From Liolophura sinensis (Eukaryota > Mollusca > Polyplacophora > Chitonida > Chitonidae), in assembly GCF_032854445.1 (NCBI RefSeq), contig NC_088295.1:5644501-5708500 (forward strand): DNA of 64,000 nt. The letters run 5' to 3'. Shown one piece after another: positions 23,101 to 60,200 of the stretch (the first letter of the stretch is position 1; the number at the start of each line of letters is the position of its first letter). The notes under the pieces were generated by a model. It ran no database searches. It had not been told where the DNA came from and saw nothing but the letters and a program-made list of their open reading frames with translations. The translations under genes were made by a program, and so were the position numbers.

Positions 23101-26100
23101 AGGAAGATGTATGAGGAGTTCCTCAGTAAAGTCTCCATACTGGGTGAGTACAGGGGCTGAGTTTCCAGTGAAGTCTCCATACTGGGTGAATACTGGGACT
23201 GAGTTTCTCACTTAAGTCTCCATACTGGGTGAGTACTGGGACTGTTTCTCAGTGAAGTCTCCATACTGGGTGAGTACTGGGACTGAGTTTCTCACTTAAG
23301 CCTCCATACTGGGTGAGTACTGGGACTGAGTTTCTCACTTAAGCCTCCATACTGGGTGAGTACTGGGACTGAGTTTCTCAGTAAAGTCTCCATACTGGGT
23401 GAGTACTGGGACTGTTTCTCAGTAAAGTCTCCATACTGGGTGAATACTGGGACTGAGTTTCTCACTTTAGTCTCCATACTGGGTGAGTACTGGGACTGTT
23501 TCTCAGTGAAGTCTCTATACCGAATGAGTGTTAGGACTGAGTTCCCCAAGGAAGTCTCCATACTCACTGAGTGTTAAGACTGACTTTCTCAGTGAAATCT
23601 CCATGCTGTGTTGATGTTACGACTGAGTTCCATACTGAGTGAGTGCTAGGACTGAGTTTCCCAAGAAAGGTCTCCATCCCAAATGAGTACTGGGACTGAG
23701 TTTCTCAGTGAAGTTTCCATACTGAATGATTGTTGGGACTGAGTTTCCCAAGAAATTCACCATATTCACTGAGTGTGAAAACTTACTTTCTCAGTGAAGT
23801 TTCCATACTTGGTGAGTGTTGGGACAGATTCTCAGTGAAATCTCCATGCTGGGATAGTGTTGCGACTGAGTTCCATACTGAGTTAGTGTTGGGACTGAGA
23901 TTCTTAGTGAAGTCTCCATACTGGGTTAGTGTTACAGTTATTTGTGCTTTGTTAAAGTGTCACCGAGGGTCCAGTTTCTAACGTGTACATGTATCGGTGG
24001 TTTCTGATTAGAGGAACTAATGCAACGAAATACAGCGATAATGAGAACAGCTAATGTTCAGAAACACTTTAGATTTATACTACATACTGCCAATAAATAA
24101 AGCACAAATAATAAAGTTTTGTCTTTTAATGTAGTCCAACATTTGGATTTAGCATAACAAGCGTATCATGTTTCGATCCCAAAACGGCAGTTGTTCGTGT
24201 ATACAGAAATGTTTCGACAGGTAAAAAAAAATTACCAGTCGCACTAGGCAACTTGCCACAGAATGAAATAATACTGGAATCCCTGCTATCAAAACAAAAT
24301 CAAAAGGTAAAGTGAGTGAGTTATTGGAATAAACCCAGTAGGCCTACAGGATGAGGGGTATCGGTATTAAATAAATGTAGGACTATGAGCGTCATTCAGA
24401 TTCATTCCTCATGAGGAAGAACTGTAATAATTAATTTATTCTGGAATGCCGTGACAAGTTGTAATTCTGGGCAATCAATTTTCATGCTCACACTAACCAA
24501 ACAAAAACAAGTTGCAGAAAAAAAAAAATGTGGGACAATGTCTACAATATTACAGTATATAATAATATGACGTTATGGTGCAATGCAGTCATGGAATAAT
24601 GAGGTGGGGCCGGGTTATCCATTCCAAACAGAATAACTGATAAGCCCTTTTTGGGTGTAGAAGGCCAGTGAATTGTACAAGAAGACAGTAGACCTATTTC
24701 ACAGTCCTTGGGCTCTAGTTTTGTCTATGTTCTTTTGTTTATTTATTTAGTTTAGTTTATTCTTCTTTGTATTAATCTGCTTGCTGTGTTATTGCATTAT
24801 TTGTTTAGTAATAAAAGATATCAGTAAGCCAGTCTAAGATCACAAGTTGTTTGACAGTGGAGGATAGTCCATATTCCTGTTTGTGTGACTGTTTGTGTTT
24901 AAAGCTTCTGTTTGATGGAGCCTGTGTTTGTCTTGACAGAGAACCTAGACAAGTGGGAGAGGCTTACTGTGGCTGATGCTTTAGAGGCTGTCCAGTTTGA
25001 GGATGGAACAGAGATCGTCAAACAGGGTGCCAAGGGAGATGACTTCTTTGTGATTCTGGAGGTAGGTATGATGCTCTATGGCATTGCTGTCTTTCTCCGA
25101 TTGCTGGCTCTTTTGATACAGTCACATTTAATGTGATTATTCCACTAGTAGGGCTCAATATTCTACATTGTCAGCTTGCCTGTACAAAGAATAGACATAG
25201 CTTGTCATACCCCTAGCCCAGGTATCAGGGTCCAATAACAGTGAAAGCAGTGTTAAGGTAAATGTTAGGGGTGGTATTTCAAAACATACTGTATGTGTTG
25301 AGCACAGGCTTTACATACATGTAGAGCACAATAAGATGAGGGGGGCCTCTGTGGCTGAGGGGTTAGCTCGCCAGCGCAGTGACCCAGGAGCTTCCCACCA
25401 ATGCAGTCGTTGTGAGAACAAGCCCAGCTCATGATGGCTTCTCCAGTAGTAATTGGAAATGTGTTCCAGCAACCTGTGGATGGTCATAGGTTTCCCCCTG
25501 GCTCTGCCCAGTTTCCTCCCACCATAATGCTGGCTGCCGTCATATAAGTGAAATCTTCTTGAGTATGGCGTAAAACACCAATAAAATAAATAAATAAATC
25601 ACAATAACATGAAAGGATATATTAGTTGATTTCCTCCATACCTTGTATCATAAATAACAAAATTAATCTTCATTGATCGTCATTTTTTTTTTTGCTTTTT
25701 ATACGACTCACCAATAGGCAGAGCGTATTATGTTATAGCAATTTTGTCCATCTGTTTGTCTGTTCGTATTCATGTCTGGGCTGTAACTCCAACAGTGTTA
25801 ACTTTGGTGGATACATAAATATACAGATGATGATGTGCCGCGACTCACATTAGTCCATTTTCACGGTTGTCATGGTAACAAGATAGCCATTTTCCTTATA
25901 AATACTATATAAACAAATATGATTTCTTGTCTGGGCTATAACTCCAACAGTTTTCCACATAGTGTTTTCATTTTTGGTAGATACCTACATGTAGATACAC
26001 ATTTTTACAATGTGCCATGATTTACATTTTCATGGTTGTCATGGTAATCAGATAGCCATTTTCCTGATATATACTATATAAATAGATATGATTTCGTGCT

Positions 26101-57200: not shown

Positions 57201-60200
57201 CAGACAGTCAGAGGGGTTACCTATAATGGCTGCAGGTAGTAGATTGAGATACAGCACTGATACCTGACAAAGGTGAAGATGTCAAGCTAAAGTACAGATG
57301 TTGCCCAGATGTAAGTCAGAAGTACCACTGTCCAACAGAAGCACAAATGTCAGGCAGAAGTGCATCACACAGATGTACAGATGCCTAACAGAAGTATACA
57401 AATGTCAGACAGAGGCGCAGATGTGAGACAGTGGTATAGCTGTCTCCCACAAGTAAGCTGTAAGCCATATGATATCTTTACTACTCTCTAGAAAAGAGAA
57501 CATGGCAATAGAAACTAAGACAGGTCATAGTAAGAAATAATACTTAATATCCCAATAAGAAATAATTTCAAACATAACTGTCTAAAAGGTATAAAATGAT
57601 GACCAATGTCACAGTACACAGCAATGTCAAATGTCACAGTATAAAACTTGTACTGTTACACTGGACATTGTTTCTAATGACAAGACACAGTAGTCCTACC
57701 TAATGGCAAGACACAGTAGCCCTACCTACTGACAAGATATTGTCCTCCCGCCATAATGCTGGCCGACGTCGTATAAGTGAAATATTCTTGAGTACGACGT
57801 AAAACACCAATCAAATAAATATTTGACATGACAGAGTAGTCCTATCTGTTGACATGACACAGTAGTCCTATCTGCTGACATGACACAGTAGTCCTATTTG
57901 TTGACATGACACAGTAGTCCTATCAGCTGACATGACAGAGTAGTCCTATCTGTTGACATGACACAGTAGTCCTATCAGCTGACATGACAGAGTATCCTAT
58001 CTGTTGACATGACACAGTAGTCCCATCTGCTGACATGACACAGTAGTCCTATCTGCTGACATGACACAGTAGTCCTATCTGTTGACATGACACAGTAGTC
58101 CCATCTGCTGACATGACACAGTAGTCCTATCTGCTGACATGACACAGTAGTCCTATCTGCTGACATGACACAGTAGTCCTATCTGTTGACATGACAGAGT
58201 AGTTCTATCTGTTGACATGACACAGTAGTCCCATCTGCTGACATGACACAGTAGTCCTATCAGCTGACATGACACAGTAGTCCTATCAGCTGACATGACA
58301 CAGTAGTCCTATCTGCTGACATGACACAGTAGTCCTATCAGCTGACATGACACAGTAGTCCTATCTGTTGACATGACACAGTAGTCCCATCTGCTGACAT
58401 GACACAGTAGTCCTATCTGCTGACATGACACAGTAGTCCTATCTGCTGACATGACACAGTAGTCCTATCTGCTGACATGACACAGTAGTCCTATCTGCTG
58501 ACATGACACAGTAGTCCCATCTGCTGACATGACACAGTAGTCCTATCTGCTGACATGACACAGTAGTCCTATCTGCTGACATGACACAGTAGCCATTAAT
58601 CTTACCTGATCACAGGATCTGTAGTCTCACCTACTGATAGATGCTGTAGTCTTACCTGTTCATCTTCCTGTCGACTGCGATGCGCTCGCCACTCTCGCTG
58701 GATGCTTTTGGCTGCATGATTCCTCTGGAAACGTTCAGCTCTCTTGCGCAGGTCCTCACCATCTGAACGATAACTACTGCGCGAAGATTCTGCCACACTG
58801 CCCTGTCTATCAAGCATGGCAAATACACTATTGCACAGTGTCAGTTTGATGTTTAAACCCTACATAAACATGAATACATTAACATCTTATTCGGGGAAGA
58901 TATAGAAGTAGTTTCACCACCATTGTTATATCATCTGTGACATAAAATTTTGGAATTTTATTGATTTTCTTTACTTAATTGTTATTATGCTGTTCTCAAA
59001 AATTTTTCACTTACGCAACTGTGGTGAGTTTTATATAGATTTACAGACACGTGACATAGTTGTGGCTGGAAGGTGTAAACCAGGTGATTCGCCTACCTGG
59101 ACTTCCTCGCTCCAGGGGAGGGCAGCCTGTCTCTGGGGGTGAGGATCCTCTCTCTAGGAGTTGGTGTTCTGCCTCGTGGGGTTGAGCCTCTGCGGCTGAC
59201 CCTACCGCTTACCGAGCCTTCTGGTCGTGGAGACCTGTGGTCTAGACTGTCAGATATAGCATACCAGGTAAGTCAGGGTAACAATTCCAATTGTACTCAA
59301 GATTTGTCAAGCCCTGATGAAAACCATATATATCCACATTTAACACATTAAGGCTGTCACTTTTCTCACACACTTTCTCTGCTACAAGCTACAAGCTGCT
59401 ACATGTATAAACAACCAACATGCAAATGTCCATAAAAAGGTTACCTTTTTCCATTAGGCTGTGTGCGGTACAACTGGCGATCTTCCCTCAGGCGCTTGAT
59501 CACAGTCTTTAAGCGCTGGTTTTCGTCTAGAAGCTCGGTCTCCCTGTGGTCAAGCTGGGTCAGCCTCTCCTCTGTACTGCCCTCCAGCACTATCTTACCT
59601 GGTACAGGTACACACATCATTCACATAAAATTAGTCAGAAACATTACATTGATTTCAGCAATCCTAATCAAATAATCACATGTAGTTTTAAAAAGAACTC
59701 TAGGTAACTTAATATACTCAAACCAAACACAATTCCTTAAAACAACGACAACTCTTAATTTGTCACCGTTCAGCCTTCCATGTACACAGTTATGGATTGC
59801 AACACAAAGGGTTTTACATGCTTCTTAGGACCCTAAGCAACATATCCAACTTTGCCAGTCCCAAATTACACATCAAAATTAAGTACTGTATTAAGAAATA
59901 AGGTGACTTTGTATGTTTTTTGCATAACCCACCTGAGACAGGACCATCACCACGGCGACTGTCCACAGAAAGTTGAGAAATGGAGTCTCCATCTGCCAGG
60001 TCAACGGCACGCTCAGCTTTATCCAGCCTCTAGTACAACAAATATAGAATAGCATTCAGTAGGTAACAGTATACAACCAAAGACAATGAAGTAAAATAAA
60101 AGCCACATAATGTTTTATATCAAATATTGTAAAAGATAATTTGAAAAAAAAAGTACATTAATACAGTTTTGTGGGAAAACAGATGGGACTGTGTAGCAGC

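What the first reader, a model, noticed from the sequence alone, without database searches (positions are those of the whole stretch)
23116..58655. Several minisatellites are built from exon-intron junctions of neighbouring genes
In at least five introns of three genes the array unit contains the end of an exon plus its splice site, and the array abuts the real site: PRKAR1A donor (23143), LSM11 acceptors (36519 and 32601), IQCE acceptor (56995) and donor (58656). The CCDC166 last exon is also triplicated. Periods differ (26 to 60 bp), so these are independent arrays. A shared tendency to amplify splice junctions, or selection to keep decoy sites, is not something I know to be described.
Basis: partly seen in the sequence, partly recalled or inferred. 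Interest (0 to 1): 0.8.

Follow-up and report, generated by a model that had tools for sequence, protein, structure and literature searches.

The report
Splice-junction-seeded minisatellites in a chiton genome
In this chiton genome some intronic tandem repeats grew from a copied piece of DNA that included the end of a neighbouring exon and its splice site; this affects a few percent of the splice junctions sampled, looks neutral rather than selected, and has a known human precedent.

Summary
Three of the five listed arrays clearly repeat an exon end plus splice site: PRKAR1A donor (28 exonic bp of 43), LSM11 acceptor at 32601 (14 of 31), 'IQCE' acceptor (7 of 60). The other two (36519, 58656) reach the junction only through diverged copies. 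The genome is the chiton Liolophura sinensis. In 581 sampled junctions of conserved genes, 16 (2.8%) lie inside straddling arrays, so the pattern is genome-wide.

Recurrence rises smoothly from exon into intron with no junction peak. Straddling arrays are about twice the uniform-seeding expectation (ratios 1.9-2.8, intervals 0.96-5.3), so a preference is possible but unproven. Splice dinucleotides in the copies are kept no better (94.4%) than exonic (95.2%) or intronic (94.2%) columns, so selection for decoys is not supported.

Best reading: local tandem duplication ignores exon borders; when the copied piece straddles a junction, one intact exon and splice site remain and spare copies are tolerated in the intron. 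The human CBS 31-bp VNTR is the same kind of thing: a known kind, apparently unusually frequent here.

The parts
23083..23143 (+). PRKAR1A coding exon ([20 protein letters not shown] + 1 nt); real donor GT at 23144-23145
23116..23933 (+). 43-bp minisatellite; unit = last 28 bp of the exon + first 15 bp of the intron; more regular part 23116-23608, diverged copies to 23933
   Evidence: TRF, sequence; nine matches to the donor-side motif from 23137 to 23476, the real one included; unit found only here in the genome
32512..32601 (-). LSM11 exon (AMVDVDETYRNPQW...); acceptor AG at 32602-32603
   Evidence: PDB match to human LSm11, E 1.8e-12; Pfam LSM; edges read
32588..34236 (-). 31-bp minisatellite, 53.5 copies; unit includes 14 exonic bp and the acceptor AG
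   Evidence: TRF, sequence; unit found only here in the genome
34276..35639 (-). 26-bp minisatellite next to the 31-bp array, sharing the ATCAACCAT word; no exonic part seen
   Evidence: TRF, sequence
36377..36519 (-). LSM11 exon (GYAQGPLSLL...DKHMNL); acceptor AG at 36520-36521
   Evidence: PDB match; edges read
36556..37232 (-). about 51-bp diverged minisatellite; self-BLAST similarity extends to 36504, weakly into the exon
   Evidence: TRF, self-BLAST
56989..57232 (-). 60-bp minisatellite, 4.1 copies; unit has 7 exonic bp (56989-56995) and the acceptor AG at 56996-56997 of an IQ-like exon
   Evidence: TRF, sequence; unit found only here in the genome
57824..58592 (-). 26-bp minisatellite; diverged copies reach the donor of the next exon (last exonic base 58656, GT at 58654-58655)
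   Evidence: TRF, self-BLAST to 58660, sequence
46157..46813 (+). CCDC166-like coding end in three diverged copies (46157-46291, 46292-46432, 46664-46813), with a dispersed repeat between copies 2 and 3
   Evidence: self-BLAST, sequence, Pfam DUF4515

Best explanation
These are ordinary locally born minisatellites whose founding tandem duplication happened to span an exon-intron border. Such a duplication leaves one complete exon with a working splice site and places the spare copy (exon end + splice site) in the intron, where it is tolerated and can expand by replication slippage or unequal exchange. The same duplication wholly inside an exon would alter the protein and tend to be removed. 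The copies then decay neutrally. Shown: units contain coding sequence of the adjacent conserved exon; the three units tested are private to their locus; the pattern occurs at 16 of 581 sampled junctions; splice dinucleotides in the copies are not preferentially kept. Inferred: the duplication mechanism, that the exon-adjacent site is the one used, and that spare sites are ignored or their misuse is cleared by mRNA quality control.
For: Origin from the exon: units match conserved coding sequence (PRKAR1A, LSM11, myosin, dynein and SLC6 exons). Local birth. Genome-wide: 16 of 581 junctions; 16 of 541 junction-centred windows recur, reversed control 0 of 541. Smooth gradient without a junction peak: 3 of 557 at 60 bp inside the exon, 16 of 541 at the junction, 26-27 of 422-468 at 80-140 bp into the intron. 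No selection on decoys: 287 of 304 splice-dinucleotide letters match the array consensus (94.4%), against 3161 of 3321 exonic (95.2%) and 2566 of 2724 intronic (94.2%); mean percentile 0.49, Wilcoxon p 0.52, 14 arrays. Straddling arrays have longer best-scoring periods (median 74.5 bp, n 16) than others (28 bp, n 88), as expected if the chance of spanning a border grows with unit length (some of these periods are multiples of the basic unit).
Against: Straddling arrays are about twice the uniform expectation (16 seen, 6.9-8.5 expected at the loosest setting), and the density of array ends 8-40 bp inside exons exceeds that 60-300 bp into introns by 1.6 to 2.9 times (pooled p 0.11, 0.028 and 0.011 for three settings); chance seeding does not fully explain this. 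Pooled array ends are also denser 20-60 bp into introns. A count using the exon-adjacent copy as reference gave splice dinucleotides intact in 124 of 130 copies against 111 expected; I attribute this to reference bias, because that copy is constrained and the signal vanished with a copies-only consensus. Only 2 of 20 straddling units are multiples of three, and straddling arrays are slightly more uniform than others (median match 92 against 88.5, p 0.015); both could hint at some selection.
Confidence: 0.78

Rival explanations
1. Splice junctions are preferred seeds: something about the exon edge (composition, transcription-linked breaks, stalled replication) makes tandem duplication or array expansion about twofold more likely there.
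For: 16 straddling arrays in 581 junctions against 6.9-8.5 expected, ratio 1.9-2.3; ratio 2.1-2.8 with stricter arrays. Pooled density of array ends at the exon edge 1.6-2.9 times that deeper in introns, p 0.11 to 0.011, uncorrected.
Against: Lower interval bounds run from 0.96 to 1.29; batch 2 alone has 2, 1 and 1 such ends in 135 junctions, p 0.32-0.49; no peak at the junction in the TRF-free test; straddling ends lie 5 to 115 bp inside the exon, not at the splice motif; base composition falls from 49% to 35% GC over the same span and was not matched.
Confidence: 0.25
2. Decoy splice sites are kept by selection, for example to buffer or regulate splicing.
For: 9 of 13 donor arrays (7 of 11 in the sample) hold at least one copy whose donor scores as high as the real one. 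Reference-based count 124 of 130 intact against 111 expected.
Against: The copies-only consensus test shows no extra conservation. 18 of 20 units are not multiples of three, so use of a decoy would usually shift the frame.
Confidence: 0.05
3. The arrays are assembly artefacts.
For: Only the general risk with tandem repeats; nothing specific was found.
Against: HiFi assembly with mean reads of 8,347 bp at 14X (PMC11068029, passages); the longest array in the window is about 2.2 kb; copies differ from one another, and three units tested are private to their locus. Reads themselves could not be examined.
Confidence: 0.03
4. The introns themselves arose by tandem duplication of exonic AG|GT sites, so that the arrays mark intron birth.
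For: Intron gain by tandem duplication is proposed for some Drosophila introns (PMC2891723, passages).
Against: The 61-bp PRKAR1A exon agrees with the human exon c.709-769 as I recall it (no call), so that intron would predate the array. In the straddling units printed the exonic part sits at one edge of the intron with one functional site type.
Confidence: 0.04

Closest known systems
Human CBS 31-bp VNTR, c.1444_1467+7(16_21)
   Same: Tandem array across an exon-intron border; by its name each unit holds the exon end (24 bp) and the donor (7 intronic bp), 16-21 copies (PMC2630376, passages); described as lying at the exon 13-intron 13 boundary and affecting enzyme activity in PMC5188458 (passages).
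   Different: One human locus with known polymorphism; here separate arrays at 2.8% of sampled junctions, donors and acceptors, units of 26-140 bp, polymorphism unknown.
Human CBS 844ins68
   Same: A 68-bp duplication of an intron 7/exon 8 junction giving two splice sites, one strongly preferred (PMC2630376, passages): the founding step proposed here.
   Different: Two copies only; no array.
Intron gain by tandem duplication or from tandem arrays (Drosophila, PMC2891723, passages; Zhuo et al. 2007 PNAS, seen only in the reference list of PMC3488318)
   Same: Tandem duplication touching splice signals.
   Different: There the duplication is proposed to make a new intron; here existing introns grow.
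Ordinary intronic minisatellites
   Same: Private units, head-to-tail copies, neutral decay.
   Different: The founding unit includes coding sequence and a splice site.

Membership tests
Junction-spanning VNTR of the human CBS type | Repeat unit contains an exon end plus its splice site | tested here: met
   PRKAR1A, LSM11 32601, 'IQCE' 56995; 16 of 581 sampled junctions (L024 among them is marginal, 5 exonic bp and no donor in its copies). Weak for 36519 and 58656.
Junction-spanning VNTR of the human CBS type | Array continues from the real junction into the intron | tested here: met
   real junctions placed by homology and splice score, not RNA
Junction-spanning VNTR of the human CBS type | Copy number varies between individuals | not testable with these tools
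   One assembly only
Junction-spanning VNTR of the human CBS type | Copy number or decoy sites affect expression or splicing | not testable with these tools
   No RNA data
Dispersed satellite or transposon-borne repeat | Unit recurs at many unrelated loci | tested here: not met
   Three units tested match only their own locus; the tool skips very common words, so a missing match does not prove rarity
Intron created by tandem duplication | Intron absent from the ancestral gene at that position | tested here: inconclusive
   The PRKAR1A exon of 61 bp agrees with the human exon as recalled; no related genome was available
Selected decoy splice sites | Splice dinucleotides better conserved than neighbouring columns | tested here: not met
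   94.4% against 95.2% and 94.2%, 14 arrays

The most novel reading that the evidence does not exclude
In this chiton lineage splice junctions are about twofold favoured seeds of minisatellites, so that a few percent of junctions carry runs of duplicate splice sites, often of full strength, and the spliceosome must choose the correct one by position; frame-shifting units persist best because misuse is then cleared by nonsense-mediated decay.
Probability: 0.2. Interest if true: 0.65.

Novelty: new member of a known kind. Interest (0 to 1): 0.42.

Why it matters
Arrays with several identical, full-strength splice sites in a row are natural experiments on how the spliceosome picks a site, and the sample (16 of 581 junctions) suggests that this genome holds many of them. 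They also show one concrete way in which introns can grow: by copying pieces that include the exon edge. For annotation, gene predictors may pick the wrong copy, so exon ends in such genomes need RNA support.

Tried and rejected
Decoy conservation: the first test used the exon-adjacent copy as reference and suggested extra conservation (124 of 130 against 111 expected, 17 arrays). Rejected as reference bias after the copies-only consensus test, to which 16 of the 20 curated arrays were given and in which two with fewer than three copies were skipped (L018, L029). The LSM11 array supplies 106 of the 304 splice letters there; the percentile test weights arrays equally.

Splice motif as duplication break point (microhomology at CAG|GT): not supported, because straddling ends lie between -5 and -115 bp and the interval -8 to +20 is not denser than its neighbours.

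First density profile counted both ends of each array and ends cut by the edge of a stretch; replaced by facing ends only and then with array interiors removed from the denominator. Several array thresholds and baselines were tried after seeing the data; the settings are reported, and p-values are not corrected.

Rows dropped. From the lists, 253 of 280 matches were carried over by hand (80 of 81, 88 of 109, 85 of 90), and 75 of 86; left out were chiefly rows starting at domain position 1, rows with many stops, and weak rows at the end. No junction was called where a match reached the edge of its domain. Of 628 junctions, 581 passed score 3. Of 18 straddling arrays at the loosest setting, 2 (L131, L122) were dropped because I judged their junction calls doubtful by eye, after seeing the arrays; L037 was on the same list but did not meet the criterion. 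Of 41 regions of batch 2, 40 were fetched. Low-complexity windows and introns too short were skipped (541 of 581 junctions tested at position 0); its 16 hits include L066 and the doubtful L122 and lack L024 and L087. The p450 search was not used for sampling.

In the multiple-of-three comparison the 63 'other' arrays include all window arrays, the four straddling ones too, and exclude every array of a locus that holds a straddler.

Literature. Searches for junction-derived minisatellites as a class: (listings capped at 20 of 223 papers and 20 of 58); no listed title or abstract start described one. Subscription papers are mostly absent. Zhuo et al. 2007 is not held.
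Full report
What the window is. The window lies at G000:C1:5644501-5708500 of a genome of 609,464,459 bases in 632 contigs. The contig count, the longest contig (96,433,062) and a contig of 37,343,639 bases, equal to the published N50, match the chiton assembly published as Liolophura japonica (609,495,693 bases; PMC11068029, passages), since corrected to L. sinensis (PMC12441733, whole text). The small difference in total length is unexplained. It is a HiFi assembly (mean read 8,347 bp, 14X). TRF lists 43 rows in the window; arrays of period 10 or more cover 14,375 of 64,000 bases.

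The five listed arrays. Three are clear. In PRKAR1A the 61-bp exon 23083-23143 ends at a donor, and a 43-bp unit with the last 28 exonic and first 15 intronic bases is repeated into the intron. Splicing from that first donor to an exon starting at 24940 gives the conserved frame [20 protein letters not shown]. In LSM11 the exon 32512-32601 (minus strand) begins at an acceptor, and a 31-bp unit carries 14 exonic bases plus the AG, TRF counting 53.5 copies. At 56995 a 60-bp unit carries 7 exonic bases plus the AG. Two are weak: at 58656 and 36519 TRF stops 64 and 37 bases short of the junction, and only self-BLAST carries the similarity across it. The CCDC166-like coding end is present three times. 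PRKAR1A and LSM11 are confirmed by sequence; the CCDC166-like exon has a DUF4515 match, and the exon called IQCE has only sub-threshold IQ-type matches. The three clear units match only their own locus in the genome, so they arose locally.

Is it genome-wide? I took exon matches of four conserved families in the same genome: myosin head, SLC6/SNF, dynein AAA_6 and, as batch 2, dynein linker DHC_N2. Exons with 500 (batch 1) or 320 (batch 2) flanking bases were fetched as 179 stretches, 291,156 bases (total). Junctions were placed by the end of the profile match and a home-made splice-site score: 628 called, 581 accepted (446 in batch 1, 135 in batch 2). Eighteen lie inside straddling arrays at the loosest threshold; 16 were kept after two doubtful junctions were dropped, 14 in batch 1 and 2 in batch 2. 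Several are unmistakable: in dynein locus L053 the acceptor of one exon and the donor of the next sampled exon are both repeated (37 and 65 exonic bases), in L071 115 exonic bases, in L050 16 exonic bases with 17 further copies. One, L024, is marginal (5 exonic bases, no donor in its copies). Of the 16, 11 are donors and 5 acceptors.

Is there an excess at junctions? A test without TRF took 24-base windows at fixed distances from the junction and asked whether they recur with at most five mismatches in the next 150 intronic bases. The rate rises smoothly: 3 of 557 at 60 bases inside the exon, 16 of 541 at the junction, 26-27 of 422-468 at 80-140 bases into the intron. The reversed control gave 1 of 7,487 over all positions and 0 of 541 at the junction. 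There is no peak at the junction. The count of array ends leans the other way: 16 straddling arrays against 8.5 or 6.9 expected if founding duplications fell uniformly (two intron baselines), ratios 1.89 and 2.31, locus-bootstrap intervals 1.05-3.09 and 1.29-3.74; stricter arrays give ratios of 2.1-2.8 with intervals from 0.96 to 5.33. The pooled density of array ends 8-40 bases inside exons is 1.61, 2.25 and 2.91 times that 60-300 bases into introns, p 0.11, 0.028 and 0.011 for three array settings, uncorrected; batch 2 alone gives p 0.32-0.49. Pooled array ends are also denser 20-60 bases into introns, so any excess is not confined to the junction, and GC falls from 0.49 to 0.35 over the same span. 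My reading: no depletion, a possible twofold excess, not established. Sample limits: four gene families, some paralogues, no RNA support, thresholds chosen after seeing the data.

Are decoys selected? With the copies' own consensus, splice dinucleotides match in 287 of 304 letters (94.4%), exonic columns in 3161 of 3321 (95.2%), intronic columns in 2566 of 2724 (94.2%); the dinucleotide's percentile among column pairs averages 0.49 over 14 arrays, Wilcoxon p 0.52. An earlier count against the functional copy looked like selection (124 of 130 intact, 111 expected), but that copy is constrained, which biases the comparison. Decoys can be strong: 9 of 13 donor arrays (7 of 11 in the sample) hold at least one copy scoring as high as the real donor. 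Straddling arrays are slightly more uniform than others (median match 92 against 88.5, p 0.015; 16 and 88 arrays), which fits either youth or mild removal over time. Two of 20 straddling units are multiples of three (binomial p 0.018 against one third, uncorrected), against 19 of 63 other arrays; this is a lead only.

Mechanism. The simplest account is that tandem duplication does not respect exon borders. If the copied piece straddles a junction, the exon and one splice site survive intact and the spare copy lies in the intron, free to expand and decay. The chance of straddling grows with unit length, and straddling arrays do have longer best-scoring periods (median 74.5 against 28 bp). That the exon-adjacent site is used is inferred from the reading frame (PRKAR1A) and from homology, not shown by RNA.

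What is known. Human CBS carries both stages: a 68-bp duplication of an intron-exon junction (844ins68) and a 31-bp VNTR whose name gives 24 exonic plus 7 intronic bases in 16-21 copies (PMC2630376, passages; PMC5188458, passages). Intron gain by tandem duplication is a related but different process (PMC2891723, passages). In searches (listings, some capped) I saw no paper that treats junction-derived minisatellites as a genome-wide class, and a term search of one comparative chiton paper found no mention of tandem repeats, minisatellites, satellites or simple repeats in its main text (PMC12005716). So the kind is known; the frequency in this genome appears unreported in what I could search.

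Noticed in passing
G000:C99 and C632 (L001): Contig C99 holds seven COX1 matches (six full-length, one partial) about 15.5 kb apart on one strand, which looks like a head-to-tail mitochondrial concatemer left in the assembly, or a large nuclear copy; C632 holds another copy.
   Followed up: no
window 6006-6272, 9976-10115, 10468-10689, 12714-12872, 25340-25599, 46430-46642, 50343-50551, 57739-57821: A dispersed repeat of about 80-260 bp in both orientations, possibly SINE-like; one copy sits between the two TRF pieces of the 26-bp minisatellite (57674-57737 and 57824-58592) and one between copies of the CCDC166-like segment.
   Followed up: no
straddling arrays in the sample and window: Unit lengths of straddling arrays are seldom multiples of three (2 of 20; other arrays 19 of 63), a possible sign that frame-shifting duplications persist better.
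   Followed up: partly
L053 (G000:C12:3988118-3990197): A dynein gene stretch in which one exon's acceptor and the next sampled exon's donor both seeded arrays, with decoy donors scoring as high as the real one.
   Followed up: partly
window 32588-35639: Two adjacent arrays of different period (31 and 26 bp) share the word ATCAACCAT and align to each other in self-BLAST, so one may have budded from the other.
   Followed up: no
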